A stretch of 64,000 nt of DNA, taken from Clostridium sp. GTDB taxonomy: Bacteria; Bacillota; Clostridia; Lachnospirales; Lachnospiraceae. Positions 19,312-51,348 of this stretch are shown here, piece after piece. The position numbers and the translations under genes are program-made. The stretch spans positions 86,054 through 150,053 of the forward strand of contig JAMPFU010000001.1 in NCBI GenBank assembly GCA_023664385.1, read 5' to 3'. The first letter of the stretch is position 1. The number at the start of each line of letters is the position of its first letter. The notes beneath the pieces were generated by a model. The model did not search any database. It was not told the DNA's origin and saw only the letters and a list, made by a program, of their open reading frames with translations.

Positions 19312-19474
19312 ATAAAGCCTCCAATTGATTCTTTCTGTAATATAATCTGTATTATTCAAAAATATATTACTATCATACCAAGCTTAATATGTAAGGTCAA
19401 ATGGTATTTGCTATTTCTTTTGTTTATCAATTCAACATGTATTTCGTTTCAAAATATTTTTTATTTCATGTTTT

Positions 19475-19912: not shown

Positions 19913-19931
19913 AATCATTCCTCCTATAAAT

Positions 19932-21065: not shown

Positions 21066-21091
21066 ATGTATCTCCTGCTTGCACCTAAATA

Positions 21092-22092: not shown

Positions 22093-22106
22093 AACAATAC
22101 CTCCTA

Positions 22107-22377: not shown

Positions 22378-22719
22378 TTACCTCCTAAACATTATTTCTT
22401 TATGTATATTTTTTTGCCCATATGGTAATTGTGAATCACCTTCCCCTTCGTCTTGTAACATTTTAATTATTTTATTTAATTCGTCACTTTTTATTTTTAT
22501 CCTTTTAGATAGACTTGTAAGTTCATCAAGTGTTTTCCTTAACTCTTGCACTAAAGGCAGAAGCATGGATACTGTAGATATACCCAGACTATCATCTCCA
22601 AGGTTACTTTTTGTGTCGTTGATAATCTTAAGCATACCATCTATTTCTTCTAACAAATCAGTACGATATTTATCAACATATAACTTCATCTCATTAAGTG
22701 CATTAATTAATTCATCCAT
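22378..22719 (-). CDS. Small helical protein, 113 aa
   Basis: Paralogue of the 88-residue protein downstream, with the shared NDTKSNLGDDSLGIST motif near residues 34-49. It has an additional C-terminal extension of about 25 polar residues (DEGEGDSQLPYGQKNIHKE) and otherwise is a helical hairpin. It starts one base after the EssC stop codon (22721), so translation is coupled to the ATPase. The extension could be a recognition tail, but no YxxxD/E-type export signal is clear. Confidence 0.75.
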   Translation of the reverse strand: MDELINALNEMKLYVDKYRTDLLEEIDGMLKIINDTKSNLGDDSLGISTVSMLLPLVQELRKTLDELTSLSKRIKIKSDELNKIIKMLQDEGEGDSQLPYGQKNIHKEIMFRR

Positions 22720-22720
22720 A

Positions 22721-25700
22721 TTAACTCACCACATTCCCCTCTTCATCAACATGAAAACCGCCAATAGATATATCCCTACTTACAAACACATTGGATTTAT
22801 ATTTTGAACTATTTCCTACATAAAGTAACTCTGTCGGTTCCATACGATTTAAACTCCTTTCATTAAATTCATATTGGAATTCCTGACTCATGGAAAACAA
22901 CAATTTATGCTTATATAATCTCATATCTGGTCTTATGCTCTTAAAATCAGATATATTGCCAAAATAAACCACAAAATGTTTTCCTCTTTTTGATGCTGTT
23001 TTTAGTAATTTATTAATATCATTTCGAGCATCGTATGTTTTATTGACAAAATCACCTTTCGAGACATTAACCACATCAGATGAATCTCCTCGAACTGAAA
23101 AGCTCATATTTATATTTTCTCTCTTGTCAGGATCTGAAATCACTTGATTCCATGCGTCCATAAGCAACTCAAACTCTTGATTTATATCTGATAACAAACT
23201 GTCATTTGTATCAGCGTCGTTCTCATCGTTGTCTTCATCATATAATTCAAATTCATCAAACAAATTTCTAATACCTAGCATAATAATAAGTTCATCTTTT
23301 GAATAATCAGCGTCTTTCTTATCATTAATCCTTCCTATATCCATGCATATCTCATCAATTCCTTTGCAAATATTATTAATTGCAAACTTATTTTTAATGT
23401 ATTTTCTGTAAAGGATATTACGCGAATCTGTCCATAAGGTCACTTTTACTCCTGCCCTTTTACACTCTTCCTTAAATGCTAATATAGTATTTGAAATTGT
23501 GGCAACATCTCCACCTGCCATAATTATATTTTCACATGCATCTCTATGCAAAAATATGGTTTTAATGCCGTTAAAGCCCTGAGGTGTTCCAGGGTATAGA
23601 ACCACATCATCGTCATCATATTCGTCATCATTTATCAATTCCTCCCTTTCATATTTTTCAAATAGCGGTACTTGTGACATGTATGTTTTTGGAATATTAC
23701 CTGTAAACAAAAACGGTTCCTTATTAACATATTCAGTATCGGATAATTTGTCAGAATATGCAGACACATTAAATGCTGTATTCAACTCATCCATATATTC
23801 ATCAATATCTTTAGATTCAATTTTAAGATTATTTATACGGTTGACTTGTACAATATAATTATCGTTAGAATCTGTTAGATGTGTTTTTATAAGTGTCTTG
23901 TATGGAGGCAACGTTGCAACGTAGTTGTCAATCATATCGTTTCTTTGAATAGGCGTTAAAGCTAGTGTATCATTAATTTCAGCAACAGAATTTTTTAACG
24001 CCATTCTCATTTGAATTTGATCCTTAGCTGCGGGACTCAAGCCGTTCATTCCATTATTAAAGCTCTGACTTGCAAAAATAAATTTGAACCCTAGTTTCCG
24101 TCCTTCTCTAAGCAAATTTTCTAATTTTAATACATAATTATTTTCTAATTCATTTGCTCTTGTTTCTGAGATAATCTGCGACATTTCCGCAAACTCATCA
24201 ATAATAACAAAGACCACTGGCATATAGACACCAACCGGAACGTCTGTTATGTCATTCCAACCTCTACTTGAAAATAAGTCTTTTCTTTCTTCCATCAACT
24301 GATAGAGCTTATCAATTACCCCGAAAACCATTTCATCGGAATTACCAAGAATAATATTTTTGATATGCGGAGGGCATTTTTTGGCATACTTCGAAAATCC
24401 AGTTTTCATAAAATCAATAAGCCAAAGTTCAACTTCATCAGGATGATAATTCATCAAAATTCCGACTATAATGTCGTCTAATAAAACAGATTTACCAGAA
24501 CCAGCAGTTCCCATAATATAAGATGCAAAATTGTTTTTCTCAAAATCACAATAAACCAGGTTATTATTGTCATCTATTCCAAATGGTACGACAATTCTTC
24601 TCCTAACTTCTTCTGCTCTTTTAGGAATCATTCTTTTACACAGAGAAAAATAATAATTATCTATATGTTCTTTATTTTTTTCGATATGTGAATCAACAAC
24701 TTCAGTATCAGCTACTATACCTTTTTTCTTATATTTTTCAGAAATTGACATTAATATATCATTTCGTTCTCTATTGTCCAAAAATGCCACTCTAAATATA
24801 GTGTTACATTGTTTAGCACCGGCATTATAATTATAAACAGCCATTCCTCTTTCAATAAGCAAATTTGCTTCACCAGCACTCTCACCAAGTGCAATTTTTG
24901 AAACATTGCTAGTACACATAAGTGCTATTCTAATAGCAATTTGATTATATGCAGCAGCGTTAAAATTTGTTGCAGCCTCAATATTTTGTGTAGATAATAT
25001 TACATGAATACCAAACCCTCGTCCTTGCTCCAACAAACGTTGAAGCATTTCTGAACTCTCTGCTGAAATATAATCCAATTTCTTAGAATCAAATAGGACT
25101 TGATATTCATCGATTATCAATAAAATTCTTGGAATCTTTTTCTCTGTTTTTCTCCTATATGATGTTATATTTTCGCAATCAACTTCTTTAAACAATTCTG
25201 ATCGCCTTTTCATTTCGGAATTTATTCTATGTATAACATCGTATCCATATTTTCTATCACTCTCTATAGCAACTAATTTAATATTCGGAAGATTGTACTC
25301 TCCATAACATTTAAATTCTACACCATGTTTAAAATCCAATAAATATATAGATAATTCTTCATAGCTATATTTAATCATCATACTATTAATTAATGTATGG
25401 AGTAGAGTCGTTTTTCCACTTCCAGTGTTTCCAACAATCAATGCATGGTGAGTAACTCCTTCACCACCAATTAAAAAATTCTGAAGGTTACCTACCCCAA
25501 TTTGACCTATAGGCACTTCCAAATTATCAGTCGAATCACCAACAAACCAATCATTGGGCTTTATAATATCAGAAAAACCAACTATAATTCTTCCTGCATC
25601 TTCAACACCCTTCTTAAAGGCAGGTACTACTGTGTTCAAAATATCATCCGATACCATATTCCAAATTCTAAACTTAATATTAGGATTTGTGTTATTGGTA

Positions 25701-27481
25701 TAAAGATTATTTTCCTTATTGAATACAATAGATTTTCTCATTATATTATCTATTATTTTCGTCGTCCCATCAGGAGAAATTGCCAATTGCGCTCTGGACG
25801 AAAACAAAATTGTATATACTCCACATCTTGGTCCCGATTCTATAATTCTTTCTAGTTGCTTTATATTTTCATGAGAAAAAGAAGCAGGAAAATCCATCAC
25901 CAATAAAACCTGATAAGGTTCCGCATTGCTTCCCGCAAGCTTATTATATTCTTGTATAGACATATCACTGCTTTGCAGACATGAGGAAATCACATGTTCG
26001 ATATGGTCACTGACAACCGACAACTTATTTTTAATTGCAACTGAAGTAGTGGCTATTCCACCAGTTAGCAGTTTATTTGTAGCCTTATTATAATCAACAA
26101 ATTTATTAAATGGAGCAAATGTATTCGATGCTTTAAGCGGATCTATACATACAAAATTAATTGTTCCAGCAGGGGAATTTAATAATATGCTTGCAGCTAT
26201 AAACTGAATATCATTTATAACATCATCATTTGAATCAACATCATAAATGTATACCATACTTTTATTATCAAAAAAGCTCAAACTGATTGGAACTCTAATC
26301 GTGTCATCAGAAACAATTAAACTATAATTATTTTCAAGAAAATCTCTCTGCTCATTACACACAATATATTCGCCTATTTTTATTTCCGACATACCTATTT
26401 CATAGCACTCAGGCATTTCACTCGCACATGCATAATTACCAAAATCAAGCATATTTTCAGTCATATGGTATTCAAAATACTCTTTTATTTTTTCAATGGG
26501 AAATTTATCTTCAAAGCTTTTCTCGAATGAAGCAATTAGATTTGACAAATCGTTCTCACTTGTTTCTATAGCGGACTTAATCGATTTATCAAATTTTTCA
26601 TCAAGCATATTATCCTGTTCGTCAAATTCATCAGAGCTGGTAGCCATCGCTAATTCCATATCCTTTTTAATAACAGATATATCATTCTGGAATTTATTAT
26701 TAATCTCTTGTAGCCTTGAATCAAACGAGGCATTATTAGTTAAGTTTTCCTGATTAAGCGTATTTTTTTGAGATTCGAGCTTGGAACATTTTTCATTGCA
26801 ACATGAAACTATTTCTTCTACATTCTTGTTGATTTCATAATAAAGCCAATTTAAAAATGACCATAGCTGTGTTCCATGTTCAGACGCAATGCGCTTTTTT
26901 AATAATCCTGTTTCGGAATTAAATAAATCTACCATTGCCTGAACAGTTGAATAATCAACTTCAAGAGCCTTTCTTTTTTCAACAAATAAAAAATCAGCAG
27001 GCGTCTGATTATTCTCTATTTCAAAAAACAGTTTGGCATTTCTACCTAATTCTAATGATGACTTAATTTCGTTGGCTTTATTTATTAATTTCAATATCTT
27101 ATTTACTTTAATATCACAGTCAATTCTTAAATCGCTAATTTTAGAATTAATGTCTTTTATTTTTAATACAAGCTTTTCATTATTTTGGTCTTTCTGTGCT
27201 TTTATTTTTGATATAGACTCATCTCTGCGGCGTTGTGCTACTATTTCTAAATTATTTTTTTCAGAACTAATTTCATCCTTTTTATCATTTATTTTCTTCG
27301 ATAGTTCTCTTTTTTTAATTTCATGGTCATCATTTATTTTCTTAATTTTTAAATCATTATTTTCTATTATGGAATAATATTTATTGCGAAATCCGGTGAG
27401 TTCATCAATTATTCCCATTACAATATTTTCAGACGATACAAGTCTTACATCATCCCAATCAATTCTCCCAAATCCGTCCAT
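22721..27481 (-). CDS. FtsK/SpoIIIE (EssC-type) ATPase with N-terminal coiled coil
   Basis: 1586 residues from ATG 27481 (MDGFGRIDWDDVRL); the earlier in-frame GTG at 27499 overlaps the GGGGGAG ribosome site. Residues about 35-340 are a charged coiled coil. Residues about 340-620 form a globular region. The first FtsK-like ATPase has Walker A GNTGSGKTT near 685 and Walker B RILLIIDEYQVLF near 785. The second has GTAGSGKSV near 991 and VVFVIIDEFAEM near 1090. A C-terminal third P-loop-like domain looks degenerate. This tandem layout is EssC-like, but the N-terminal FHA domains of classical EssC are replaced by coiled coil and no membrane helices are clear. It likely drives protein (less likely DNA) translocation. 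It sits between the VTT protein and three small helical proteins. Confidence 0.88.
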   Translation of the reverse strand: MDGFGRIDWDDVRLVSSENIVMGIIDELTGFRNKYYSIIENNDLKIKKINDDHEIKKRELSKKINDKKDEISSEKNNLEIVAQRRRDESISKIKAQKDQNNEKLVLKIKDINSKISDLRIDCDIKVNKILKLINKANEIKSSLELGRNAKLFFEIENNQTPADFLFVEKRKALEVDYSTVQAMVDLFNSETGLLKKRIASEHGTQLWSFLNWLYYEINKNVEEIVSCCNEKCSKLESQKNTLNQENLTNNASFDSRLQEINNKFQNDISVIKKDMELAMATSSDEFDEQDNMLDEKFDKSIKSAIETSENDLSNLIASFEKSFEDKFPIEKIKEYFEYHMTENMLDFGNYACASEMPECYEIGMSEIKIGEYIVCNEQRDFLENNYSLIVSDDTIRVPISLSFFDNKSMVYIYDVDSNDDVINDIQFIAASILLNSPAGTINFVCIDPLKASNTFAPFNKFVDYNKATNKLLTGGIATTSVAIKNKLSVVSDHIEHVISSCLQSSDMSIQEYNKLAGSNAEPYQVLLVMDFPASFSHENIKQLERIIESGPRCGVYTILFSSRAQLAISPDGTTKIIDNIMRKSIVFNKENNLYTNNTNPNIKFRIWNMVSDDILNTVVPAFKKGVEDAGRIIVGFSDIIKPNDWFVGDSTDNLEVPIGQIGVGNLQNFLIGGEGVTHHALIVGNTGSGKTTLLHTLINSMMIKYSYEELSIYLLDFKHGVEFKCYGEYNLPNIKLVAIESDRKYGYDVIHRINSEMKRRSELFKEVDCENITSYRRKTEKKIPRILLIIDEYQVLFDSKKLDYISAESSEMLQRLLEQGRGFGIHVILSTQNIEAATNFNAAAYNQIAIRIALMCTSNVSKIALGESAGEANLLIERGMAVYNYNAGAKQCNTIFRVAFLDNRERNDILMSISEKYKKKGIVADTEVVDSHIEKNKEHIDNYYFSLCKRMIPKRAEEVRRRIVVPFGIDDNNNLVYCDFEKNNFASYIMGTAGSGKSVLLDDIIVGILMNYHPDEVELWLIDFMKTGFSKYAKKCPPHIKNIILGNSDEMVFGVIDKLYQLMEERKDLFSSRGWNDITDVPVGVYMPVVFVIIDEFAEMSQIISETRANELENNYVLKLENLLREGRKLGFKFIFASQSFNNGMNGLSPAAKDQIQMRMALKNSVAEINDTLALTPIQRNDMIDNYVATLPPYKTLIKTHLTDSNDNYIVQVNRINNLKIESKDIDEYMDELNTAFNVSAYSDKLSDTEYVNKEPFLFTGNIPKTYMSQVPLFEKYEREELINDDEYDDDDVVLYPGTPQGFNGIKTIFLHRDACENIIMAGGDVATISNTILAFKEECKRAGVKVTLWTDSRNILYRKYIKNKFAINNICKGIDEICMDIGRINDKKDADYSKDELIIMLGIRNLFDEFELYDEDNDENDADTNDSLLSDINQEFELLMDAWNQVISDPDKRENINMSFSVRGDSSDVVNVSKGDFVNKTYDARNDINKLLKTASKRGKHFVVYFGNISDFKSIRPDMRLYKHKLLFSMSQEFQYEFNERSLNRMEPTELLYVGNSSKYKSNVFVSRDISIGGFHVDEEGNVVS

Positions 27482-27501
27482 AATATAATTCTCCCCCACT
27501 T

Positions 27502-28020
27502 TTAAAAATAATAAGCCTTGATAGCTATCATAGTATATAAAGAAGTCTTAAGTATCTTACCTATCAAACAGAGCACTAAAACCTTAGAAAAAGAATATTT
27601 TACTATCCCCGAATATACTCCAACATAATCAAAAATAGGCAAAGAAACAAATGCTGTTATTAAAATAATAAAAGCACCATATTTTCTAAATTTATCATTA
27701 ATAATAGTAATGCTTTCATCATGTAAATTTGATCTTCCAAGCAGGCCTCCAAAATATCCTATACAACCCCCTAGTGTAAATCCCACTCCAGATATTATAG
27801 CAACAGCTATCGGATTAAAAATCATTGCAGAAGATACAACTAATGCCAGTCCTGATGTGGGAAGAAAAGCAACACTATTTGCAAAAAAGCAACCAAGAAA
27901 CAACAAAATATAATTTTGAACAGCGTATCCTTGTAATTCATTTCTATTTACAAACACCAAAATTGACCAAATAATTAATATGACAATTAATACAATATAA
28001 TATATTTTCCTACGAACCAC
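27502..28020 (-). CDS. VTT/DedA-like (SNARE-associated family) membrane protein
   Basis: 172 residues and about five hydrophobic segments. FLPTSGLALVVSSAMIFNP and ISGVGFTLGGCIGYFGGLLGR resemble the VTT domain core (proline-containing re-entrant loop and GxxxGxxxGY pattern) of the YqaA/DedA group. DedA-type proteins act in lipid scrambling or transport. The start overlaps the end of the kinase gene by 11 bases and the stop is 20 bases before the EssC start. Its place inside this operon is unusual; it might assist insertion of the complex or alter the membrane. Function is inferred from family resemblance only. Confidence 0.72.
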   Translation of the reverse strand: MVRRKIYYIVLIVILIIWSILVFVNRNELQGYAVQNYILLFLGCFFANSVAFLPTSGLALVVSSAMIFNPIAVAIISGVGFTLGGCIGYFGGLLGRSNLHDESITIINDKFRKYGAFIILITAFVSLPIFDYVGVYSGIVKYSFSKVLVLCLIGKILKTSLYTMIAIKAYYF

Positions 28021-31000
28021 CTAATAATACTCCTATAATAACTATAATTACAACAAAAATTAATATACCTGATAATAATCCTAATATAGTTTCAACAGCT
28101 CTGATAGCAAAAGCAACCACTACCGCAAGCAATAGTGCAAATACAACTCCAATCACACCAAACAACGGAATAATCACATATCGTGTAACCGAAATATAAT
28201 TATATTTATTATCTGTAGCAATAATATTAGCTATCATTCCTGCAAGCATTAGTATAACCATCACAACATAAATTTCTGTCGAATAATACTGAACTCCATA
28301 TTTTTCTATTAAATAATCTACAAAAGTTCTTCTAGCAATTCCTAACTCTAAAACCGCTAATCCGATTGCTGACAAAATATCAATTGGTATTTCGCCTTTC
28401 CTTGTCGTCTGTTCCAATCCATTTGGTATCAGTTCTTTCTCAGCTTTCAATCTATACTTCTGATAATATGTAAATTGATTCATATCAAATACTATTGGAT
28501 TACAAGAAACAGCTCTATAATATTCAAAAATTCTTTCCAAAGTAATTTTTGAAGATGCCTGCCATGCATTAATTTGTTCTGAAACAGACCTTAAATTCTC
28601 ACTCATCTGAGATGCAATATCAGAAGAATGTAAATTTGTTAATTCAATAAATCCTCTATAAACATAACAAACTGAACCTACAAACCCTCCAGCCATAAAA
28701 AACATACTATTTATAGATGTACATAGCCATATTCCAATGCCAATAAATATAGCTGCTAATATAAAACAGACAACTCCCTTTAACAAATTATTTGAGTAAA
28801 ATTTATTTTTTAAACCATTCAAATCCATTTCCGATTTTGAAATTGAACGTCGTATAGATGTTGCAATATTATTTACTTCTCGCTCAGCTCCTAGATGTGT
28901 CTCGTTATATAACTCACTGCATAACGACTGGAAATTATTTTCATGCACAAAGCCAGCCGGAACTCTAATATTATTATAAACGTACATAAATGCTGTTTCA
29001 GAAGATTTAGGAACAATGCTAAATAAAGTATCATCCCTACCTATACCAGTTGCAATTTGAAAAGGATAGTTATAAAGAGCTTTATCAAACTCAATATAAC
29101 TCTCTTCCAATTTTTCCAATGATGTAATAATCTCATTAATAGTATTAACTGTATCAACCTGTGCAGAAACAAAAATATTTTTTAGATTTAGCACATAAGG
29201 ATTCAAATACAAATAATCATCTATGTGACTTTTAAGCCAAAATATATGCGCATTATCACCTCGATGTATCACATAATTTCTTAATTTAATATTATTAGAC
29301 GCAATTGCATCTAATAATACAAATACACGTCTTTCACAGTCTGTGTTATCAAGTACCGCCAAATCTTTAGTCGCATTTTTAATATGATCTTCATAACCAT
29401 TAAATATCATCCATGCAAAAAAAAGATTAGAATTTAATAGTTCTTGGCAAAACACTTCCAAGCCACTTGGCAAATCACATAAATAGTCTACAATTTGTTC
29501 CACATTATGGAACTCCTTGTTATTAATTTTAATAGTTCGCTCTGTCTGGGCAGTGAGAAAATGCATAACAAACAAATACTGTGTCATCTCCGAATTACTC
29601 TGTGCTCTATCTTCAAGTCCACGTATCACTGCACTCAAATCATCATTATCATGTATTGATTTATTATATTTTATAAACCATGAGAATACCCTCTTAACTA
29701 ATAGTGACCGAACGTCAGCCTTTCCATCTTTTACTGCACTTGCAAGTGAACTAAAGTCTTTATAACTTTTACCTTTCCACCATATTTTAGGTATATGATC
29801 ATCCAGTAAATATATTGCTTTAAAAAATAAGCAATCTATGTCATCCTCTACTACAACAACTTCTTTTTCAACCAAATCATCTAACAATGATGATTTATCT
29901 GGGCGTTGCGAAGCAAGCCATTGCGATATATTTTTCCGCATTACATCTTTCTTTGTGTAATCCCAGTTTGAAGCTAAATAGTCTGCAAGTTCTGATAATT
30001 GATATATCTTCTCGCCGTCACGAGTGTAGAAAGGGTTGGAAAAATCGACTTCTATTCTCTCTTCTTTCTCAATAAGAGGGAACTCTCTTTTCCCATCACA
30101 CCATTCAATAATTTCTTTATATCCCCATCTATCATTAGGGTCAAATATAGTAAGACCACAAATTAATCCTTCAATTCTTTCTTTTAATGTAAACGTACCA
30201 AAAACCTTATCAACAAACTTCTGTCTGTCAAGCAAAGGTATCCTTCCACCATTCGTTCGCATTACAATGTCAGGCAAATCCATGCCTGCAAACAAATCTA
30301 TGCCTCCATTAATCAATGACAATAGTGTAATGCCAAAAGAATAATAGTCAGAAGATATAGTAGGCGTGCCACCTAACACCTCTGGTGCCGCATACCCGTT
30401 TGTCCAAAAATTATTCCTTGTGTATCCCATGCCGCTTTGTTCCTCAACAAGCGACATAATTCCTAAATCGCTAAGCATAACATATGATCCATCATTAGAA
30501 ATCAATATATTACTAGCCTTTATATCCTTATGTACTATACCTTTTGAGTGTATAACATTTAATGCTTCATTCACATTAGGAATAACTGTTTTAACGATAA
30601 AACTTAAATCCAATTCTGTTGCATGCTCCGCCAAATTTCCACCATCAAAGAAAGAATATACATCAAATAATTTATCATTATATTCACCGTAATCTACCAA
30701 TGGAACAATATACCGACATTCTTGATTATAAAGAAGTGAAATAAAAGCCTCTCTTTTATCTCTAGACATTCTCTTAACTGCAACATAATATTTAACGATA
30801 TACTTATTTTCTCCAGCAGTTGCGAGAAACAAAATAGCTTCTCCACCCTCTGAATAGATATCTGTTATAGTATAAGTACCATATACCCCCTTTATATCCA
30901 TTCCTATCATGTACAGATACTCTGCCGCATCAGAGCTATACGATCCTGTTTGTGTAGCATTTTGAACATACGTCTTATCTATAGCCCTTGCATCCATAAC

Positions 31001-31036
31001 ATTTGTAACTTGTTCTTTCTTTTCTGTTTGCATCAT
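28010..31036 (-). CDS. Membrane-anchored Ser/Thr protein kinase, 1008 aa
   Basis: The kinase domain spans residues about 50-320. A Gly-rich loop SEGGEAILFLA, Lys82 in YIVKYY, Glu106, catalytic loop HKDIKASN (Asp171, Asn176), metal site SDLG (Asp190) and GYAAPE (217-219) are all present, so it should be active. The middle (about 330-760) is a helical region of unknown fold, including a block rich in Asp and Asn. Hydrophobic segments lie near residues 770-805 and several near 910-1008. Classical T7SSb systems use the pseudokinase EssB in a similar slot; here the residues are catalytic. It overlaps the PP2C gene by 4 bases and VTT by 11. Substrate unknown; the FHA protein in the operon is a natural reader. 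Confidence 0.9.
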   Translation of the reverse strand: MMQTEKKEQVTNVMDARAIDKTYVQNATQTGSYSSDAAEYLYMIGMDIKGVYGTYTITDIYSEGGEAILFLATAGENKYIVKYYVAVKRMSRDKREAFISLLYNQECRYIVPLVDYGEYNDKLFDVYSFFDGGNLAEHATELDLSFIVKTVIPNVNEALNVIHSKGIVHKDIKASNILISNDGSYVMLSDLGIMSLVEEQSGMGYTRNNFWTNGYAAPEVLGGTPTISSDYYSFGITLLSLINGGIDLFAGMDLPDIVMRTNGGRIPLLDRQKFVDKVFGTFTLKERIEGLICGLTIFDPNDRWGYKEIIEWCDGKREFPLIEKEERIEVDFSNPFYTRDGEKIYQLSELADYLASNWDYTKKDVMRKNISQWLASQRPDKSSLLDDLVEKEVVVVEDDIDCLFFKAIYLLDDHIPKIWWKGKSYKDFSSLASAVKDGKADVRSLLVKRVFSWFIKYNKSIHDNDDLSAVIRGLEDRAQSNSEMTQYLFVMHFLTAQTERTIKINNKEFHNVEQIVDYLCDLPSGLEVFCQELLNSNLFFAWMIFNGYEDHIKNATKDLAVLDNTDCERRVFVLLDAIASNNIKLRNYVIHRGDNAHIFWLKSHIDDYLYLNPYVLNLKNIFVSAQVDTVNTINEIITSLEKLEESYIEFDKALYNYPFQIATGIGRDDTLFSIVPKSSETAFMYVYNNIRVPAGFVHENNFQSLCSELYNETHLGAEREVNNIATSIRRSISKSEMDLNGLKNKFYSNNLLKGVVCFILAAIFIGIGIWLCTSINSMFFMAGGFVGSVCYVYRGFIELTNLHSSDIASQMSENLRSVSEQINAWQASSKITLERIFEYYRAVSCNPIVFDMNQFTYYQKYRLKAEKELIPNGLEQTTRKGEIPIDILSAIGLAVLELGIARRTFVDYLIEKYGVQYYSTEIYVVMVILMLAGMIANIIATDNKYNYISVTRYVIIPLFGVIGVVFALLLAVVVAFAIRAVETILGLLSGILIFVVIIVIIGVLLGGS

Positions 31037-31761
31037 AATTTCTCCACTAATACCATACTGTAATTATCATGGTTTTTTATTCCTAAAATTTTATCAGATA
31101 TCTGTGTAACCTTTTCTTCTAAGGTTATATTATCGTTTAATATCAATTCTAAATCATCAATACTAATATAATCATGTACGCCATCTGAAGTTAAAATATA
31201 AAATTCACTACTATCAATAGGCCTATCATATTTTTTCTGTGAAAGACCATCTTCATAATTTGCATTTATTGATTTTGTTATAATATTTCTAAGATTGTCA
31301 AAGACGTTTTCATAAGAATAATCCTTTATTAATGTATCATCCTCCGTCATTTGTATAAGAAAACCATTTTTCAATTTATAAATCCTACTATTACCAACAT
31401 TTATTGTATATATTTTTGTATCACTCACTACCAATAATGTTAGAGTTGATGCCATACCTTTCATTTGAATATTTTCTTTTTCTATAGCTCTAATACAATC
31501 AGAAGCCTCCTCCACCTTTAATAACAAAAGCTCCGGAGCGTCCTTTTGCAAATCAATTGTTGAAATCTTTTCTAGTATAATCTTTGAAGCCACTTCACCC
31601 GCTGGTCTCCCTCCTACACCATCTGCAATTCCAACAATAAACGAGTCTTCGAAACGTCCCTCAATTTTGCCCCCCTGGGAAGTCGTTTTATTAATCAAAA
31701 TACAATCTTCATTTTTTTCTCTATACAATCCTTTGTCAGTGAACCCCACAACATTAAACAT
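31033..31761 (-). CDS. PP2C-type protein phosphatase
   Basis: 242 residues, soluble. PP2C motifs in order: KNEDC (Asp19), VGIADGVGGRPAGE (Asp47, Gly48), GMASTLTLLVV, NVGNSRIYKL, TSDGVHDYI (Asp193) and a final HDN near residue 233. All metal-binding aspartates are present, so the enzyme is probably active. It sits directly upstream of the kinase, overlapping by 4 bases (ATGA), the standard layout of a kinase-phosphatase switch. It likely reverses kinase phosphorylation of the secretion machinery. That target assignment is inference. Confidence 0.93.
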   Translation of the reverse strand: MFNVVGFTDKGLYREKNEDCILINKTTSQGGKIEGRFEDSFIVGIADGVGGRPAGEVASKIILEKISTIDLQKDAPELLLLKVEEASDCIRAIEKENIQMKGMASTLTLLVVSDTKIYTINVGNSRIYKLKNGFLIQMTEDDTLIKDYSYENVFDNLRNIITKSINANYEDGLSQKKYDRPIDSSEFYILTSDGVHDYISIDDLELILNDNITLEEKVTQISDKILGIKNHDNYSMVLVEKL

Positions 31762-31773
31762 AAGCGATCTCGA

Positions 31774-33651
31774 TTACTCCATATAAGTTAAATTTACAAC
31801 CCCACCATTTTTACTAAACCCATTAACTACAATATGTTTATTTATTAAATTCTCATCATCATATACTATTCTTGCTAAAGGATTTATAATATATTCTTCA
31901 ACAATATTTCCTATACCCCGTCCACCATTTTCTATATTTCCCATTGCAACATCTAGTAGGTCATCAATTATCAGATCAAAATCAACAGCTAATCCTTTCT
32001 CATTCAACATATATTTTTTAACACCATCAATTTGTTTCTCTAATATTTCTCTAGCAGAGTCCTTTGATATGTATTTGAACACGATAATATTATTACCAAT
32101 TCTATTTAATATTTCCGGCTTACCCTGTTGCGAATTAAAGTAGTCTTTAATTCCGGCTGTAACCTTTACTTCAAGTTCTTCATAAGAATCTTCAGGAGAA
32201 ACATTTTTTATTTTATTACCTTGCATATCATTGACATAAATTCCCAGATTACTTGTAAAAATTATAATTGTCTCAGAAAAATAAACCGTATTCCCTTGTC
32301 CATCGGTCATTCTTCCATCATCTAGCACTTGAAGGAATTTATCCCATATTGAAGGATGTGCTTTTTCTATCTCATCGAACAACAGGATAGAGAAAGGTTT
32401 TTGACGAACTGCATTGGTCAATTGCCCTCCCGCCTCATATCCCACATATCCAGGAGGAGCTCCAAAAAGTTTTTGGTCAGCTTGAGGTTGAGCGTATTCA
32501 CTCATATCAAATCGTATACAATTTGCTTCATTATTAAATAATAACTCAGCTATCGATTTAGCAAGTTCAGTTTTTCCAACACCAGTCGGTCCCGCAAAAA
32601 ACATAATCCCTCTCGGTCTAGATTTTGCCGAAGAATGTTGCAACCCTGACATTCCGCTAGCAGCCCTCTTAATAACGTCAACAGCTCTAGTTATAGCTGA
32701 ATCCTGTCCTTTTACTCTTTCTTTAATTTTTTTATTTGCATTTAGTAATAACTCCTGTGGTATAGATTCCCATGGATTTTCCTTAATACCATATTTGTAT
32801 AGTGTTACAGCGTCATCAACACTATTAACAAGTAAATCTCCTTTTTTGCACAAGCTTATTAAAGAATTTATCTCTACACATCTCATTCCTTCAGTAATGT
32901 GCTCAAGTTTCTTTATCAGTTCATCATTTGATTCATCCTTTGGCACTTTAGTGTTATCATATTCCATTCCTATAAGATCATCTTCTATATATTTAATAAA
33001 ATCTTTTCTACCATCATTATCAGGTAACGGTATAGTAATATTTTTAAAATATGGATTGTTAATAAAAAACCATGATGGTATATCATTAATTTTATCCACC
33101 ACCATAAAAATAGAGCTTTTTTTCATTGTTCCTTCAGAAAAAATTTTATGTGCATTTAAAGAACCATATAATAGGTTTAAAAATGTGAACTTTTCCTCAG
33201 GCATTAGATTATCAGGGGTCTCACAATACCTCGAGCCAAACAACAGCACAAAAGCTACAAGCGTATTGGACGTCATCATTGTATTAATAATATTTCCACC
33301 CCAAACAATAACTGATTGTGGATTGTTATCTTCACAACAATATATTTTCCCAAGATATTCATTCTCAGATTGTCTAATATTGTTCAAACTAAAGTTATCT
33401 TTTGTAAAAATAATTTTCAAATCATCCTCATGAAACCTATTATAAAATCCGTGCAAGGGATCAAAAAAAACAATATTTTTGTATCCCTGCTCTCTCAGGT
33501 GATTATCTAAATATTCATCTAATTCACAATAACTTTTCCCATTTTCTAATTTTTTGCAATAAATATCATATATATTTCCTTCTATTACAATAAAAGTTTT
33601 TATATCTCCAAAAATCAAAAGTTCTTTTTGCCATTTAGACAACTCTTTCAT
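31774..33651 (-). CDS. ClpB-like AAA+ ATPase with a degenerate first module
   Basis: 625 residues. Residues about 290-625 form a full second-type (ClpA/ClpB D2) AAA+ domain: Walker A GPTGVGKTE (354-362), FDMSEY, GAPPGYVGY pore loop, Walker B ILLFDEIEKAH, IIIFTSNLG sensor and a C-terminal GGRGIGNIVEE. The N-terminal about 270 residues contain AAA-like traits without a Walker A (SSIFMVVDKINDIPSWFF and KNITIPLPD...RKDFIKYIEDD). No ClpB N-domain or middle coiled domain. Related proteins serve as unfoldases or assembly ATPases, like ClpV in type VI secretion. It lies 12 bases upstream of the phosphatase and overlaps the radical SAM gene by 4. Confidence 0.9.
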   Translation of the reverse strand: MKELSKWQKELLIFGDIKTFIVIEGNIYDIYCKKLENGKSYCELDEYLDNHLREQGYKNIVFFDPLHGFYNRFHEDDLKIIFTKDNFSLNNIRQSENEYLGKIYCCEDNNPQSVIVWGGNIINTMMTSNTLVAFVLLFGSRYCETPDNLMPEEKFTFLNLLYGSLNAHKIFSEGTMKKSSIFMVVDKINDIPSWFFINNPYFKNITIPLPDNDGRKDFIKYIEDDLIGMEYDNTKVPKDESNDELIKKLEHITEGMRCVEINSLISLCKKGDLLVNSVDDAVTLYKYGIKENPWESIPQELLLNANKKIKERVKGQDSAITRAVDVIKRAASGMSGLQHSSAKSRPRGIMFFAGPTGVGKTELAKSIAELLFNNEANCIRFDMSEYAQPQADQKLFGAPPGYVGYEAGGQLTNAVRQKPFSILLFDEIEKAHPSIWDKFLQVLDDGRMTDGQGNTVYFSETIIIFTSNLGIYVNDMQGNKIKNVSPEDSYEELEVKVTAGIKDYFNSQQGKPEILNRIGNNIIVFKYISKDSAREILEKQIDGVKKYMLNEKGLAVDFDLIIDDLLDVAMGNIENGGRGIGNIVEEYIINPLARIVYDDENLINKHIVVNGFSKNGGVVNLTYME

Positions 33652-34214
33652 TTTTTTCTCCTATTATGTATTCCCACTGACAGCATATGGTCATTCATGT
33701 ATAAATTTTGAAGTTTGCGTCCTTCTTCTATATATTCCTCATATTTATATTTGCAATCTTTATTCAAATATATAATTCTTTGATTTTCTGAGCCTCTTAA
33801 TGTTAAGTAATCAAAATTCAGTGAATCAATGTACTCACCATCAATTAATATATCGATTTGATCTAGTAACTCCTTTGATTTAGACATTTTCAACACTTCT
33901 TCATATTTAACCCCTGTATAGACCAATATTTCCTTATCTAAATCAGAAATCTTGATAAGAAGCTGAGTTAAATCATCAATTTGAATTAAAGGGTCACCTC
34001 CAGTAAAAGTAATACCGTCGACATTGTTATTTTCACATATAAATCTTATTCTTTGTTCAATGTCTTGGACTTGGAAATTTGCATTTTCTCTTGTATACCA
34101 TAGCTCGGGATTAATACAGCCATTACATTTATGATTACAACCTTGCATCCAAATAGCTATCCTTTTACCTATACCTAGTGTAACTACTGGATAAATTATT
34201 CTTTCGATGTACAT
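33648..34214 (-). CDS. NrdG-like single-domain radical SAM protein
   Basis: 188 residues. The cluster motif is CNHKC-NGC (Cys26, Cys30, Cys33) and VDGITFTGGDPLIQ gives the SAM-binding GG motif near residue 70. Size and order match the anaerobic ribonucleotide reductase activase (NrdG) or pyruvate formate-lyase activating branch. No glycyl-radical enzyme (NrdD, PflB-like) is encoded anywhere in this window. It is embedded between the AAA+ gene and the FHA gene, overlapping each by 1-4 bases, so it belongs to this operon. The absence of its usual partner argues for a different target, perhaps a protein of the same operon. Confidence 0.87.
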   Translation of the reverse strand: MYIERIIYPVVTLGIGKRIAIWMQGCNHKCNGCINPELWYTRENANFQVQDIEQRIRFICENNNVDGITFTGGDPLIQIDDLTQLLIKISDLDKEILVYTGVKYEEVLKMSKSKELLDQIDILIDGEYIDSLNFDYLTLRGSENQRIIYLNKDCKYKYEEYIEEGRKLQNLYMNDHMLSVGIHNRRKK

Positions 34215-34888
34215 TATATATTCACCTTAAAATGTAGATTTGCCAGTGAAAGCAGGTCACCATTTTTTAATATTTTTTCTTTTCCTTCTTGAACTAATAC
34301 TCCATTAACACGTGTCCCTCCAGGCGCAGACATTGCTTTTACATAACATTTCCCATCACTTATTAACACTTCACAGTGTACTCTGCTTACATATGGATAA
34401 TTCAAAAACAAATCCTGGTCTATATCTCCCATTCTTCCCAACACAACGTTTTTCTGAATAAACAAAATTCTTCCTGTCTTCTTTTCAATTAACTTTACCT
34501 TCAAACAAGAATCATCTTTTTTTTCTAAAATAACATTATGCAGAATAGATTCTTCTTTCTTTTCAGGTTCATCAATATTTTCTTCTTCTATTCTGCATTT
34601 ATATAATTCATCATTTCCACAGTTAATACATTTTCGCACATCCTCATTATCCTTCAGATAATTTTTAGTCCCACACGCATTGCATTTTCTATATCTTTTA
34701 CTAAGAAGAATACTTTCAACTTCCTTGTTCTCACATTTTTTTACATTTTGTTCAGTTTTGTCAGCTATTCTTTTCTCTACAGGTGGTATAAACGTCAAAT
34801 CTTTCCCACAACTTCTGCATTTTTCTCCTCCGTACGGATTCTCACTGCTACATTTATCACAAATTACTACTCTTATAATTTTTTCCAT
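34214..34888 (-). CDS. Zinc-ribbon/FHA domain protein
   Basis: 224 residues. The first zinc ribbon uses CDKC (10-13) and CRSC (24-27), the second CNAC (69-72) and CINC (87-90). The C-terminal FHA domain runs from about residue 130: VVLGRMGDIDQDLFL, YPYVSRVHCEVLI (the conserved S-x-x-H), and APGGTRVNG (NG turn). FHA domains bind phosphothreonine, so this is the probable reader of the operon kinase. The gene overlaps the radical SAM start by one base and the upstream coiled-coil gene by 32 bases. In EssC proteins the FHA is normally fused to the ATPase; here it is a separate polypeptide. Confidence 0.92.
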   Translation of the reverse strand: MEKIIRVVICDKCSSENPYGGEKCRSCGKDLTFIPPVEKRIADKTEQNVKKCENKEVESILLSKRYRKCNACGTKNYLKDNEDVRKCINCGNDELYKCRIEEENIDEPEKKEESILHNVILEKKDDSCLKVKLIEKKTGRILFIQKNVVLGRMGDIDQDLFLNYPYVSRVHCEVLISDGKCYVKAMSAPGGTRVNGVLVQEGKEKILKNGDLLSLANLHFKVNI

Positions 34889-36080
34889 TTACCCGCCTTC
34901 TTCTATCTGCTTTTTTTGTGTTTTGTATATTTTCGGATTGCTTCCTATCAATTCGGATTTTTTTTGCAAATTCTCTGCTCGGTGGCATGTCATTTCGATT
35001 AGCGAAAAAGACACCTTTTTCCTCTAAGGCGTCTACAATTTCTGGATATTGTTCACAAAATTCAATCATTTTTTCAACAGCATGCTCTTTCTCATGTTCG
35101 CAAATTTCAGAATCTTCTCCTGTTGCTACTACTTCCATTACAATAGCACCCCTATCTGAAATCTTAACAGAAATTGCGTCACTATCACCAAATTCAAAAA
35201 CACTTTTTATAGTTCTCTTATCATCCACAGGGAATATAATATCGCTTTGAATCACTTCATGACCATATTCCAACATAACTTCACTTATTGTGTCCGAAAT
35301 ATATTTTAATTTTTCTATTTCAGCAGCCTTTTTTCTAAGTTTAGCAATTTCATCTTCTATTTCATCTACAGAATGAAATGCATCCATTGTATCTGGCTTG
35401 TGACCAAATGTTTCACAGTAGCAGACATATTCATCATAAAAGTCCATAAATTCATGATACTTTTTCTTTGAAATAAAAACAAAAGTACTTAAATCCTTTA
35501 CCGAATCATCTATATTTTTCTTTAATTCTCCTCTCTCAATCGAATTAAGCAACATCTCACAATTATGTTGTATTTTTTCCTTATCTCTCTTTAATAAACA
35601 AACCTCATTCATAAAGGAATATAGCTGTTTTTTTTGCTTTTCCTTTTCGTAATCCTCAAACGAAGCATTTAATATAATTCCCTTTTTTTCCACAGTGGAA
35701 TGTGCTATTTTTTCGGCAACCACAGTTTCACCAAATTTTCGTTTCAACTCGCAAGCAACAGACTTCATTTTTTTCAACATCGTCGTTAATTCTTCGATTT
35801 TTCTCTTTAGTTCATCTGCATCTCCACTCAAGTCAATTTTCAATTGTTCAACATATAACATCAATTTTTTTATTTCATCAGAATAAAAAGAAACATTATC
35901 TCTCACACTTGAACTGATTTCTATATCAAGTTCTTGTATTTCAGTAACTATTTTAAAAAGTTCATCTCTTACAATCTTTCTCTTATTTTTTAGCTCATCA
36001 ACTTTTTTTATACGTTCTTTTTCCAGCTCAATTTTTTTTTGTTCTGCCAGCTCGGCAGCACTATATTTTGGTCCACTCAT
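34857..36080 (-). CDS. Coiled-coil protein starting MSGPKYS, 407 aa
   Basis: An N-terminal MSGPKYSAAELAEQKKIE motif is followed by a long coiled coil (residues about 20-280; for example LKRKIEELTTMLKKMKSVACEL and LRKKAAEIEKLKYISDT). A small globular C-terminal domain follows (residues about 285-350, VFEFGDSDAISVKISDRGAIVMEVVATGE), then a basic tail. The MSGPKYS start followed by coiled coil recurs in large proteins of unknown function near EssC-like systems as far as I recall, which I cannot check here. Start ATG 36080 follows GATAGGAGG. It overlaps the next gene by 32 bases, so the frames are interleaved and cotranslated. Confidence 0.8.
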   Translation of the reverse strand: MSGPKYSAAELAEQKKIELEKERIKKVDELKNKRKIVRDELFKIVTEIQELDIEISSSVRDNVSFYSDEIKKLMLYVEQLKIDLSGDADELKRKIEELTTMLKKMKSVACELKRKFGETVVAEKIAHSTVEKKGIILNASFEDYEKEKQKKQLYSFMNEVCLLKRDKEKIQHNCEMLLNSIERGELKKNIDDSVKDLSTFVFISKKKYHEFMDFYDEYVCYCETFGHKPDTMDAFHSVDEIEDEIAKLRKKAAEIEKLKYISDTISEVMLEYGHEVIQSDIIFPVDDKRTIKSVFEFGDSDAISVKISDRGAIVMEVVATGEDSEICEHEKEHAVEKMIEFCEQYPEIVDALEEKGVFFANRNDMPPSREFAKKIRIDRKQSENIQNTKKADRRRRVNGKNYKSSNL

Positions 36081-36094
36081 TCTGTAACCTCCTA

Positions 36095-36560
36095 TCAGCT
36101 ATATAAATTCAAAATATTCAAATCTTCTTTTGCTTCCTCTATACCATTATTTATAGCTGCTATCAGATATGTTTTAACCAAATCATATGAAACCGAAGCC
36201 TCCTATCCATTAGTATATGCAACACCTATCATATGCTGTGCAACAGGAAAGCCCTTGTCAGCAGCAAATTTAATATATTGCGTATCTTTTTCAACATCTT
36301 TCAATTCCCCAGATTTGAATGGACAGTTACGTAATTTTGCCCAAAGTAGTAGTCACTTTTTTCACTACCGTATGAAATAGCTTGCATATGGCAATATAAT
36401 CTTTTTATCAAATTCTTAGGAATTCCTCCTTATTCGACTCCATACTCATACAGAGTAGCAAGATTTAACATTCCTTACAAACCATTATAAACCATTTTTA
36501 TTACTCTTTTTCCATACTCAATATGGGCATTTCTAATTCCGTATCTAAATAGTCCAAATT
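36095..36560 (-). pseudogene. Decayed Sel1-repeat gene
   Basis: The minus strand between 36560 and 36095 reads as Sel1 repeats broken by stops and a frameshift. Readable parts in order: GMLNLATLYEYGVE, stop, GGIPKNLIKRLYCHMQ, then SYGSEKSDYYFG. A one-base slip near 36335-36350 follows, then KLRNCPFKSGELKDVEKD and FAADKGFPVAQHMIGVAYTNG. After a TAG, AAINNGIEEAKEDLNILNLYS ends at TGA 36095-36097. Two TAA codons also break the upstream part. The layout matches the Sel1 gene at 21494-21811 and the repeat-like N-terminus of the gene at 36575-37627. It explains most of the 494-base gap 36081-36574; the first part near 36560 has no clear start. Confidence 0.75.
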
Positions 36561-36574
36561 AACCACCTTTTATT

Positions 36575-37627
36575 CTAAATCAAACTATTAAATGCTTCAT
36601 ATACTGCCTGATGCCATGACATTTCTTTATTGTACGCTTCTTCATCAGGTCTTCCTCCTGTAAAGAATTTCATTTTTGAAATGAACCCAACTCGATCAAA
36701 ATCTCCACTTAATACAGTGTTATACTCATTCATTTCCTTAAATGCTTTACTTGAACCAATAAAAAAGAATCTTACTCCATCATTCATAAACACAAACAGT
36801 TCATCGCAATACTGTTGTGGTGGATTCGGATGAGACACTTTTAAAGCTCTAAGCACTGTCTTATTAAGTAATCCCCCACCCTTTGATGCATCATTTTGTT
36901 CAACCATTGCAAAAAACGTGTTCATAAAGCCTCCCGATGTTAAGCTAGTAACAGATACTAAAACAGGAATTCCTCTCATCCTGCACTCTGCCTCTAAGCA
37001 CCTTTCTACTTCTCTTACAGAAATCTCCATCATGTTAGAAATACCTATAGGCTCTGCAAATTCACTTCCTAAATCATTCAATAAATAACCTGGTTCAATA
37101 ATTTCTGATGCAAAAGAAAAGTGAGAAATTTTTATTTTATTATCGACTGTTTTTTCCTGTTCAGTTATTACATTTTCAAAAAGCATCGTATTTTGAGCCT
37201 CATCGCAACCATACTTTGAGGCAATATCAAAATAATAATGACTCTTATCTTTTTCACTGTTTTTTAAAATTGAAGCATACTCTAAAGCCAAATAACCTAT
37301 TCCTGCTTTAATAGTTTCATCTATATAATCTTCTATTATGCTTCTTTTCTCTTCCCAATTAGCCTTCTTAAGATATATTTTCGCTACAGCAGAGACCGCA
37401 TAAACATTTCCCTCGTCAGCCAAACTAACAACTTTATCACTATATTCATCACCTTTCTCTGCGAAGCGAACCCAATAATCTGTCAAAATTTTCCAATGCA
37501 TTTGAAGATTTGATGTAATAATAGAATTATCAAATAAACTGCTGAATCGAGAATCATCTTCATCATATTTCCACTTGTATGATAAATCATTAACATACTT
37601 AATTTCATCTTCTAATAATTTAATCAT
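36575..37627 (-). CDS. Sel1/TPR-like protein with a C-terminal globular domain, 350 aa
   Basis: Residues about 1-165 are helical repeats of the Sel1/TPR kind (AVSAVAKIYLKKANWEEKRSI, GIGYLALEYASILKNSEKDKS, YYFDIASKYGCDEAQNTMLF). Residues 165-350 form an unrecognised mixed alpha/beta domain with VLVSVTSLTSGGFMNTFFAMV and VFMNDGVRFFFIGSSK. No signal peptide. Its start overlaps the preceding gene by 4 bases. The gene runs into the decayed Sel1 copy downstream, suggesting a former tandem. A scaffold or client-binding role in the operon is likely but unproven. Confidence 0.75.
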   Translation of the reverse strand: MIKLLEDEIKYVNDLSYKWKYDEDDSRFSSLFDNSIITSNLQMHWKILTDYWVRFAEKGDEYSDKVVSLADEGNVYAVSAVAKIYLKKANWEEKRSIIEDYIDETIKAGIGYLALEYASILKNSEKDKSHYYFDIASKYGCDEAQNTMLFENVITEQEKTVDNKIKISHFSFASEIIEPGYLLNDLGSEFAEPIGISNMMEISVREVERCLEAECRMRGIPVLVSVTSLTSGGFMNTFFAMVEQNDASKGGGLLNKTVLRALKVSHPNPPQQYCDELFVFMNDGVRFFFIGSSKAFKEMNEYNTVLSGDFDRVGFISKMKFFTGGRPDEEAYNKEMSWHQAVYEAFNSLI

Positions 37628-38304
37628 TGCATTTCCTCATTATTCTTTATATTAATGACCTGTGCTATTCTATTTAAATAATCTTTTATCACACCTTGAC
37701 CAACTCTCGCAGTTAATCTTTGTCCCGAACTCATCACAAAAAAAATTTCATCATTAATGCCTGAAACGCCGTAGGAACTGATATCATTAATGCTTGCACA
37801 AGTGGTGTCAACCAACGGAAAAATTGAAGAAATACTATTAATAATAATTCTTCTGTCCGTCACAAATAGTCTACCAATCAATCCTTCTTTTACTATTTCT
37901 TTATTCTCATCGCTTAAACTTGAATAGCTTCTTTCATCAATTTTCAAAAATGTATAGAAAAATAATTCTACTTTTTCCTCCCCCTCTACAATTAATTCTA
38001 CGGGATTAATCCCGGTAACAGGCATATTAATAAGATTAAATATTTCAGAATTAAATAAATCTACCAATTCATCAACATCTTTTTGCATGCAGAGACTTAT
38101 TTCACTTTCAATTTGCTCTTTATAGTTGTTCATTTCTTCTATTTTCTTTAATGCAATTTGTACATTAGACTCTGATAGCTCATATCTTTTTTCTTTAAGA
38201 TATTCAATAGCCTCCGCTCTAGATGCCTGTCCTCCAACAGCCCCATTTTCCCTTGATATCCGCATTTTAGCTAAATTATTTACCAAATATTCTTTAAAAT
38301 CCAT
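37624..38304 (-). CDS. First gene of the island: helical N-terminus plus PH-like C-terminus, 226 aa
   Basis: Residues 1-75 are charged helices (MDFKEYLVNNLAKMRISREN, then RAEAIEYLKEKRYELSESN). From about residue 100 the pattern VELIVEGEEKVELFFYTFLKID, then GRLFVTDRRIIINSISSIFPL, then DISSYGVSGINDEIFFVMSSG is like bacterial PH/GRAM domains (the xLFVTDRRIIxx motif is a common short-PH signature). Such domains bind membranes or proteins. It is the first gene after the promoter at 38343-38371 and overlaps the next gene by 4 bases. Function unknown. Confidence 0.78.
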   Translation of the reverse strand: MDFKEYLVNNLAKMRISRENGAVGGQASRAEAIEYLKEKRYELSESNVQIALKKIEEMNNYKEQIESEISLCMQKDVDELVDLFNSEIFNLINMPVTGINPVELIVEGEEKVELFFYTFLKIDERSYSSLSDENKEIVKEGLIGRLFVTDRRIIINSISSIFPLVDTTCASINDISSYGVSGINDEIFFVMSSGQRLTARVGQGVIKDYLNRIAQVINIKNNEEMQ

Positions 38305-38402: not shown

Positions 38403-38424
38403 AACAATAAGTCATTCTATTGTT
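38403..38424. promoter_or_regulatory. Second operator-like inverted repeat, in front of the XRE gene
   Basis: AACAATA (38403-38409) and TATTGTT (38418-38424) are arranged around AGTCATTC. It shares ACAACAAT with the palindrome at 38345-38364 (read on the minus strand there). It sits just upstream of a -10 like TATACT (38431-38436), so the XRE gene at 38465 may be autoregulated. The -35 element is poor. Confidence 0.5.
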
Positions 38425-38464
38425 ACAGAATATACTTTATTATTATATTCAGGAGGTTGATTAT

Positions 38465-51311: not shown

Positions 51312-51348
51312 TTATTTTGCCTCCTTTCAGTAACCCTACCGTCAAGAA

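What the first reader, a model, noticed from the sequence alone, without database searches (positions are those of the whole stretch)
22721..38304. A 16-kb phospho-regulated EssC-like operon of no recognised type
Fourteen or more genes are packed with 1-32 base overlaps. They encode a PH-like protein, Sel1/TPR proteins, a MSGPKYS coiled-coil protein, a zinc-ribbon FHA protein, an NrdG-like radical SAM enzyme, a ClpB-like AAA+, a PP2C phosphatase, a membrane Ser/Thr kinase, a VTT membrane protein, an EssC/FtsK-type ATPase and three small helical proteins (continuing to 21494). Seen: motif completeness of each protein and the gene overlaps. Known: kinase, PP2C, FHA and ClpV-like ATPases regulate type VI secretion in Proteobacteria, and EssC with small helical substrates defines type VII. 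Inferred: this operon combines the two logics in one Gram-positive machine. The region is visibly more AT-rich than the flanking rnf and butyrate operons, suggesting acquisition.
Basis: partly seen in the sequence, partly recalled or inferred. Interest (0 to 1): 0.88.

Follow-up and report, generated by a model that had tools for sequence, protein, structure and literature searches.

The report
Widespread kinase-controlled unfoldase gene cluster
A bacterium carries a probably acquired gene cluster whose six core genes (kinase, phosphatase, phosphate reader, coiled-coil protein, protein unfoldase and radical enzyme) recur together in distant bacteria, in several cases beside antiviral genes, so it may be an undescribed cell-defence device rather than a new secretion machine.

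Summary
The operon is real: 10 intact genes and one broken Sel1 gene in 22721-38304, 14 intact genes down to 21494. It is AT-rich and sits at a site that is short in five congeners.

The interpretation needs changing. The conserved unit is not EssC-like. It is a six-gene core: Ser/Thr kinase, PP2C, MSGPKYS coiled-coil protein, zinc-ribbon FHA protein, NrdG-like radical SAM enzyme, and an AAA+ protein with a P-loop-less first module and a ClpB-type second. By profile, all six occur in 11 of 35 stretches carrying that AAA+ family; AAA+ plus NrdG-like in 29 of 35, mostly Clostridia-type genomes and proteobacterial plasmids.

Neighbours or operon partners include type III CRISPR and BREX genes and Mokosh/Hhe-like helicases; some loci lie among ordinary genes. 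The FtsK-type ATPase matches strongly in only 2 of 35. It has no membrane helix or FHA domain, so type VII membership is not supported, though one small partner is a predicted helical hairpin.

Most likely (about 0.5): a phospho-switched AAA+/radical-SAM defence module with exchangeable nucleic-acid motors. Defence is inferred from context without a control. No name for this gene set was found in PADLOC, NCBIfam, Pfam or the papers searched.

The parts
38420..38800 (+). HTH regulator, divergent from the operon; likely operon repressor (inferred)
   Evidence: HTH_3 4.4e-12; congener G652 keeps the gene at 91% protein identity
38334..38375 (.). putative operator over the operon promoter
   Evidence: 21-nt arms, 81% complementary; overlaps a minus-strand promoter-like site 38371-38343; G652 has a perfect 24-bp palindrome. 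Promoter-like sites in the region: 7 found, 3.2 expected
37624..38304 (-). 226-aa first gene of the operon; 'PH-like' not confirmed
36575..37627 (-). 350-aa protein, no Pfam family
36095..36560 (-). broken Sel1-repeat gene (described only)
34857..36080 (-). MSGPKYS coiled-coil protein with C-terminal alpha/beta region; core gene
   Evidence: alignments A2, A9; model, mean pLDDT 68.3
34214..34888 (-). double zinc ribbon + FHA; core gene
   Evidence: Pfam FHA 2.8e-10; four CxxC
33648..34214 (-). NrdG-like radical SAM enzyme (CNHKCNGC); core gene
   Evidence: Fer4_12 2e-35; TIGR02491 123.8 bits, cut-off 126.1
31774..33651 (-). AAA+ protein: N-terminal module without P-loop + ClpB-D2-like module; core gene
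31033..31761 (-). PP2C phosphatase; core gene
   Evidence: PF00481 1.2e-9; Stp1 model 119 bits, below its 230 cut-off
28010..31036 (-). Ser/Thr kinase with four C-terminal hydrophobic helices; core gene
   Evidence: PF00069 4.9e-26; hydropathy
27502..28020 (-). VTT membrane protein; accessory
   Evidence: PF09335 6.2e-10
22721..27499 (-). FtsK-type tandem ATPase without hydrophobic helix; accessory motor
   Evidence: PF01580 1.5e-44; two P-loops
22378..22719 (-). small helical-hairpin protein 1
   Evidence: AlphaFold hairpin, block-mean pLDDT 90 or more over residues 1-90
22107..22373 (-). small protein 2, paralogue of 1 (33% identity)
21820..22110 (-). small protein 3, no Pfam family
21494..21811 (-). 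Sel1-repeat protein
   Evidence: PF08238 1.5e-10
21092..21367 (-). PqqD-like protein (adjoining cassette)
   Evidence: PF05402 1.3e-7
19932..21065 (-). SPASM radical SAM protein (adjoining cassette)
19787..19939 (-). possible precursor peptide
   Evidence: ORF only; the role is inferred

Best explanation
The operon is a probably acquired, probably HTH-repressed island built round a conserved phospho-switch/AAA+/radical-SAM module, and its most likely job is cell defence against foreign DNA or phage. Shown: the six core genes, their recurrence, their motifs, the variable site and the neighbours. Inferred, in order: an infection cue relieves the repressor or activates the membrane kinase; the kinase phosphorylates partners, probably the MSGPKYS scaffold or the motor; the zinc-ribbon FHA protein reads the phosphate and docks the motor to the AAA+/NrdG-like pair; the AAA+ protein remodels a protein that the radical SAM enzyme activates or modifies; PP2C resets the switch. 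The motor is the exchangeable part: an SF1 helicase (with a PIN protein, or kinase-fused) in other lineages, and here an FtsK-type translocase with helical-hairpin proteins.
For: Core linkage: of 38 stretches profiled, 35 carry the AAA+ family; 29 of 35 also an NrdG-like gene and 11 of 35 all six core genes at E 1e-4 or better. Some loci trained the profiles, but five of the 11 complete ones (G810, G838, G986, G844, G964) did not; the MSGPKYS-type match is weak (about 1e-5) in L060, G986 and G964. Pairwise distances of AAA+ and NrdG-like proteins correlate, r 0.88 in 23 pairs, 0 of 5000 permutations as high. CxxxCxxC in 23 of 23; second-module Walker A and B in 23 of 23; first-module Walker A in 0 of 23. 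Defence context: type III CRISPR genes within about 12 kb of the core in all 4 genomes of one genus that matched, next to it in two, with CRISPR arrays in 2 of the 4; in the Hydrogenothermaceae MAG stretch a UvrD-like helicase matching DRT (353 bits) and GajB (329 bits) models and an IetA-like ATPase (70 bits); annotated BrxL and DarT on an Acinetobacter plasmid; a type I restriction S subunit and ArdA on a Moellerella plasmid; HsdR-N and TIR proteins on a Photobacterium plasmid; an anti-phage dCTP deaminase on a Geminocystis plasmid, where the NrdG-like gene lies about 9 kb from the AAA+ gene; a CHAT-TPR gene in G838. Operon partners match defence models: helicases to MkoA (320 bits), PDC-S37 (1308 bits) and Hhe (545 bits) (PADLOC models here carry no cut-off). 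Mobile setting: variable site, integrase beside the G273 core, plasmids.
Against: No functional data. No control set was run to show that defence neighbours exceed expectation; the CRISPR-linked genomes are one genus, and the repeat pattern tested was absent from the stretches of two of the four. Core loci in G952 and G920 lie beside ordinary genes, and so, by recalled gene names, do G810 and L057. No match in 50,697 phage records or in one viral-contig scan, which fits defence but also anything non-viral. In the window the only possible defence-type neighbour I saw is a RhuM-like gene (name recalled, not tested). Gain of the island is not proven: G652 keeps both its ends with other genes between, so loss or replacement also happens. 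Five MAG loci hold the AAA+ gene without the rest. The Aquificota case is a MAG contig.
Confidence: 0.5

Rival explanations
1. The core is a chromosomal stress or protein-quality signalling module: the kinase/PP2C/FHA switch directs a ClpB-type unfoldase and its radical SAM partner to damaged or glycyl-radical proteins, and motors or helicases are incidental neighbours.
For: In G952 and G920 the scanned neighbours are ordinary genes, and in G810 and L057 they look so by recalled names; the NrdG-like protein is close to true NrdG models (123.8 of 126.1 bits).
Against: Patchy distribution: 6 of 392 order genomes (one match, G190, probably spurious) and 14 of 398 phylum genomes (one, G1006, weak); plasmid and island settings; helicase operon partners.
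Confidence: 0.22
2. One reading: a phospho-regulated type VII-like secretion machine, with the FtsK ATPase exporting the small helical proteins.
For: FtsK/EccC homology (155.7 bits to TIGR03924, cut-off 509.15); small protein 1 is a predicted hairpin whose structural matches include EsxA, CFP10/ESAT-6 and LapD2; a kinase/PP2C/EssC/WXG100 cluster exists in this genome.
Against: No hydrophobic helix or FHA hit in the ATPase; no EssB/YukC in the genome, although the C9 cluster lacks it too; none of the 7 WXG100 matches in the genome lies on the window's contig; unrelated hairpins score equally; no such hairpin gene was recognised in the G273 relative, whose 104-aa small protein does not look like one (not modelled); most core stretches show no such FtsK.
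Confidence: 0.12
3. The operon serves peptide (RiPP) production or immunity: the PqqD/SPASM/peptide end is the product and the rest is regulation and export.
For: Adjoining PqqD-like, SPASM enzyme and short peptide ORF; other radical SAM genes lie near the core or pair in L062, L064, L135, L139 and L178, and a PqqD-like gene in G273 (23.5 bits, cut-off 23.4).
Against: 126-base gap before the cassette; the neighbouring radical SAM genes are of different families (L062's are HxsB/HxsC). Peptide genes were not searched in the other loci.
Confidence: 0.07

Closest known systems
Mokosh (MkoA/MkoB) and Hhe/PDC-S37 helicase defence families
   Same: Helicases beside the AAA+/NrdG pair match MkoA, Hhe and PDC-S37 models, the PIN protein matches the MkoB N-terminal part weakly (22.9 bits), and a Rhizobium helicase matches kinase models at its N-terminal side.
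   Different: The window operon has no helicase hit; the AAA+ and NrdG-like genes were not matched by any Mokosh or Hhe model in the scans made.
Type VI secretion regulators PpkA, PppA, Fha and ClpV (roles recalled)
   Same: Same four protein kinds in one operon.
   Different: TagH model 27.5 of 120.25 bits; ClpV model 210.6 of 884.95 bits, second half only; no T6SS structural family among the hits of the proteins scanned.
Type VIIb secretion (EssC, WXG100)
   Same: FtsK-type tandem ATPase next to small proteins, one of them a predicted helical hairpin.
   Different: ATPase without hydrophobic helix or FHA domain; no EssB in the genome.
NTP-dependent conflict systems of Kaur et al. 2020 (PMC7159879; passages seen)
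   Same: Theme of AAA+ ATPase with exchangeable effectors; the passages mention a radical SAM enzyme in FtsH ternary systems and a kinase/PP2C/vWA link in actinobacterial GAP1-N2 systems.
   Different: In the passages seen, no ClpB-type/NrdG-like pair or FHA/MSGPKYS core is described; the rest of the paper was not read.
Dodola (DolB, ClpB-like)
   Same: ClpB-type AAA+ module (90.5 bits).
   Different: The match lies in residues 268-469, the AAA+ region and the stretch just before it; no DolA hit among the ten operon proteins scanned.

Membership tests
Type VIIb secretion system | EssC with membrane helices and N-terminal FHA | tested here: not met
   No hydrophobic helix at the threshold that finds them in four EssC proteins; no FHA hit (FHA found in the C9 EssC)
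Type VIIb secretion system | EssB/YukC in the genome | tested here: not met
   PF10140 in 0 of 1 genome; the control search found it in Bacillus subtilis. The C9 EssC cluster lacks it too
Type VIIb secretion system | WXG100-family small proteins in the operon | tested here: inconclusive
Type VI secretion (regulatory branch) | TagH/Fha and ClpV equivalogs | tested here: not met
   27.5 of 120.25 and 210.6 of 884.95 bits
Mokosh | MkoA-type helicase in the operon | tested here: not met
   No helicase hit among the operon proteins; the MkoA match of the window kinase is to its kinase part. Present beside relatives of the AAA+/NrdG pair
Core phospho-switch/AAA+/radical-SAM module (defined in this report) | All six core genes in one stretch | tested here: met
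   Window and 10 further stretches of 35
Anti-phage defence system | Protects a host from phage or plasmids | not testable with these tools
   Only context available

The most novel reading that the evidence does not exclude
A new class of bacterial immune machine whose invariant engine is a two-module AAA+ unfoldase paired with a radical SAM enzyme, switched by a kinase/phosphatase/FHA relay and coupled to interchangeable nucleic-acid motors; in this window the motor is a soluble relative of the type VII ATPase that has kept WXG100-like hairpin partners.
Probability: 0.3. Interest if true: 0.88.

Novelty: new variant of a known kind. Interest (0 to 1): 0.68.

Why it matters
An AAA+ unfoldase tied to a radical SAM enzyme, kept together from Clostridia to proteobacterial plasmids, has no worked-out precedent in defence known to me. 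If it is immune, it links phospho-signalling, protein remodelling and radical chemistry in one testable system. The five-gene plasmid version (helicase, PIN, 371-aa protein, AAA+, NrdG-like) is compact enough to test directly.

Tried and rejected
EssC as conserved hallmark: rejected. The FtsK search matched 292 of 299 family genomes, but only seven others had a best E below 1e-23, and the core tally shows a strong match in 2 of 35. Phage origin: no phage record match and no relative in one viral-contig scan. E. coli by DNA: 1479 records matched, none over 80% of the query; the 20 rows shown are ordinary Clp genes. MSGPKYS fold: mean pLDDT 68.3, best PDB match E 0.12, a weak likeness to RnlA at E 0.22 not used. 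AAA+ first module against PDB sequences: best a match of about 60 residues to VCP-like ATPases at E 7e-4. G190 (E 5.6e-4) had no core gene by profile in its 33-kb stretch, and G1006 was weak: both treated as false or remote. Of 19 plasmid hits nine were fetched; ten (H3, H5, H7, H8, H9, H11-H15) were not. G460's AAA+ gene is broken and G883's is cut by the contig end; both are counted in the 35. PADLOC was run on ten operon proteins; the small proteins, Sel1, PqqD, SPASM and HTH were not scanned with it. No control for defence-neighbour frequency was run. Papers: passages of PMC7159879 and PMC11291487; all others were search listings. Names such as RhuM, Gx transporter, etfA, rnf and his genes, and a placing of the window in Lachnospiraceae, are recalled.
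Full report
WHAT IS THERE. The minus strand from 38304 to 21494 carries 14 intact, tightly packed genes and one broken Sel1-type gene. Pfam and NCBIfam support kinase, PP2C, FHA with zinc ribbons, NrdG-like radical SAM, a ClpB-type AAA+ half, VTT, FtsK_SpoIIIE and a Sel1 protein (21494-21811); the 'PH-like' protein and the 350-aa protein have no hit above a cut-off. Catalytic motifs are intact by pattern. After a 126-base gap the strand continues into a PqqD-like and a SPASM radical SAM gene with a short peptide ORF.

WHERE IT SITS. In 1-kb windows GC falls to 0.28-0.35 over 18-39 kb, and third-position GC is 0.231 against 0.391 in 15 flanking genes. Both flanking genes matched in 27 of 37 genus genomes; in 7 of these they are close neighbours, with 20.8 kb between them here, 5.7 kb in G652 and at most 0.9 kb in five. 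G652 keeps the HTH gene, the promoter region and the first 48 bases of the operon at 89% identity, and short stretches of the RhuM-like gene at the other end, but has other genes between. So the site turns over; gain is likely from composition, but loss also happens. An inverted repeat overlaps the operon's promoter-like site; in G652 it is a perfect 24-bp palindrome. The HTH protein is therefore a plausible repressor; this is inferred.

WHAT IS CONSERVED. With the AAA+ first module as bait I found matches in 6 of 392 order genomes (one probably spurious), 14 of 398 phylum genomes (one weak), 9 loci of genome contigs and 19 plasmids. I profiled 38 stretches: 35 hold the AAA+ family, 29 of these also an NrdG-like gene, 11 all six core genes, and 2 a strong match to the window's FtsK, with a weak one in L138. 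Some loci trained the profiles; five of the 11 complete ones (G810, G838, G986, G844, G964) did not, and the MSGPKYS-type match is weak in three (L060, G986, G964). The AAA+ and NrdG-like proteins vary together (r 0.88, 23 pairs, 0 of 5000 permutations), which shows shared inheritance, not contact.

TWO OTHER ARRANGEMENTS. Photobacterium, Moellerella, Polaromonas and Acinetobacter plasmids and the genomes G331 and G981 carry helicase, PIN-type, 371-aa-type, AAA+ and NrdG-like genes in that order. Three Rhizobium plasmids carry AAA+, NrdG-like and a large helicase (about 2090 aa in two, split in the third), and in the one scanned its N-terminal side matches kinase models. Aristaeella has the six core genes plus a DUF4011 helicase that matches PDC-S37 at 1308 bits and Hhe at 545 bits. 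The Hydrogenothermaceae MAG has the core plus a 1220-aa protein with a helicase C-terminal domain that matches no PADLOC model at E 1e-5.

WHY DEFENCE. Type III CRISPR genes lie within about 12 kb of the core in all 4 genomes of one genus that matched, next to it in two; CRISPR arrays were found in 2 of the 4. Other neighbours are a UvrD-like helicase matching DRT and GajB models and an IetA-like ATPase, BrxL and DarT, a type I restriction S subunit and ArdA, HsdR-N and TIR proteins, an anti-phage dCTP deaminase and a CHAT-TPR gene. Against this, G952 and G920 lie among ordinary genes, as G810 and L057 seem to, no control frequency was computed, and no experiment exists. I hold defence at about one in two.

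IS IT TYPE VII? The ATPase has two complete P-loops but no hydrophobic helix at the threshold used and no FHA hit; four EssC proteins tested the same way show helices, and so, with one segment, does the G273 relative. No EssB/YukC model hit was found in the genome. Small protein 1 is predicted as a confident hairpin and resembles EsxA, CFP10/ESAT-6 and LapD2 no better than unrelated hairpins. FtsK proteins without hydrophobic helices occur near tryptophan-bearing small proteins in G201, G026 and G248, so a type VII ancestry of this motor is possible.

NOVELTY. In the scans made, no PADLOC, NCBIfam or Pfam family covered the AAA+ first module or the MSGPKYS protein at a meaningful score, and none named the set. 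The ten paper searches listed nothing that describes it; PMC7159879 came closest, and the passages seen do not describe this core. Most subscription papers are outside that library.

Noticed in passing
window 19787-21367 (-): Possible RiPP cassette: PqqD-like protein, SPASM radical SAM enzyme, and a 41-50 aa ORF whose shorter form starts MKYTKPEV (RiPP role inferred).
   Followed up: partly
window 36081-36574 (-): Broken Sel1-type gene inside an otherwise intact operon.
   Followed up: partly
window 18286-19359 (-): RhuM-like gene (name recalled) at the island edge; only two short stretches of it match in congener G652.
   Followed up: partly
L149/L152 (own contig C9) and L153/L150 (C22): Two type VII-like clusters in the same genome: C9 has membrane EssC with FHA, WXG100 genes, kinases and PP2C; C22 has an EssC with hydrophobic helices, FHA-like proteins, WXG100 matches nearby and an 83-aa YukD-type protein (name recalled). 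No EssB model hit in the genome.
   Followed up: partly
L039, L037, L041: FtsK ATPases without hydrophobic helices near small proteins with a W-x-D motif, a possible separate family in relatives.
   Followed up: no
L054, L055, L056, L058, L061: AAA+ family member with no core or NrdG-like gene found in the stretch, in five MAGs (four titled as from deer; L054's stretch is only 3.3 kb).
   Followed up: partly
L035/L036 (G112): FtsK, HerA-like, another AAA-type protein and an NrdG-like gene together without the six-gene core.
   Followed up: no
L062:11546-13827: HxsB and HxsC (His-Xaa-Ser peptide maturases, above NCBIfam cut-offs) a few genes from a core copy.
   Followed up: no
window 48429-54375: Strong AT skew (to -0.6 at 49-50 kb) over two long minus-strand ORFs, far from the operon.
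   Followed up: no
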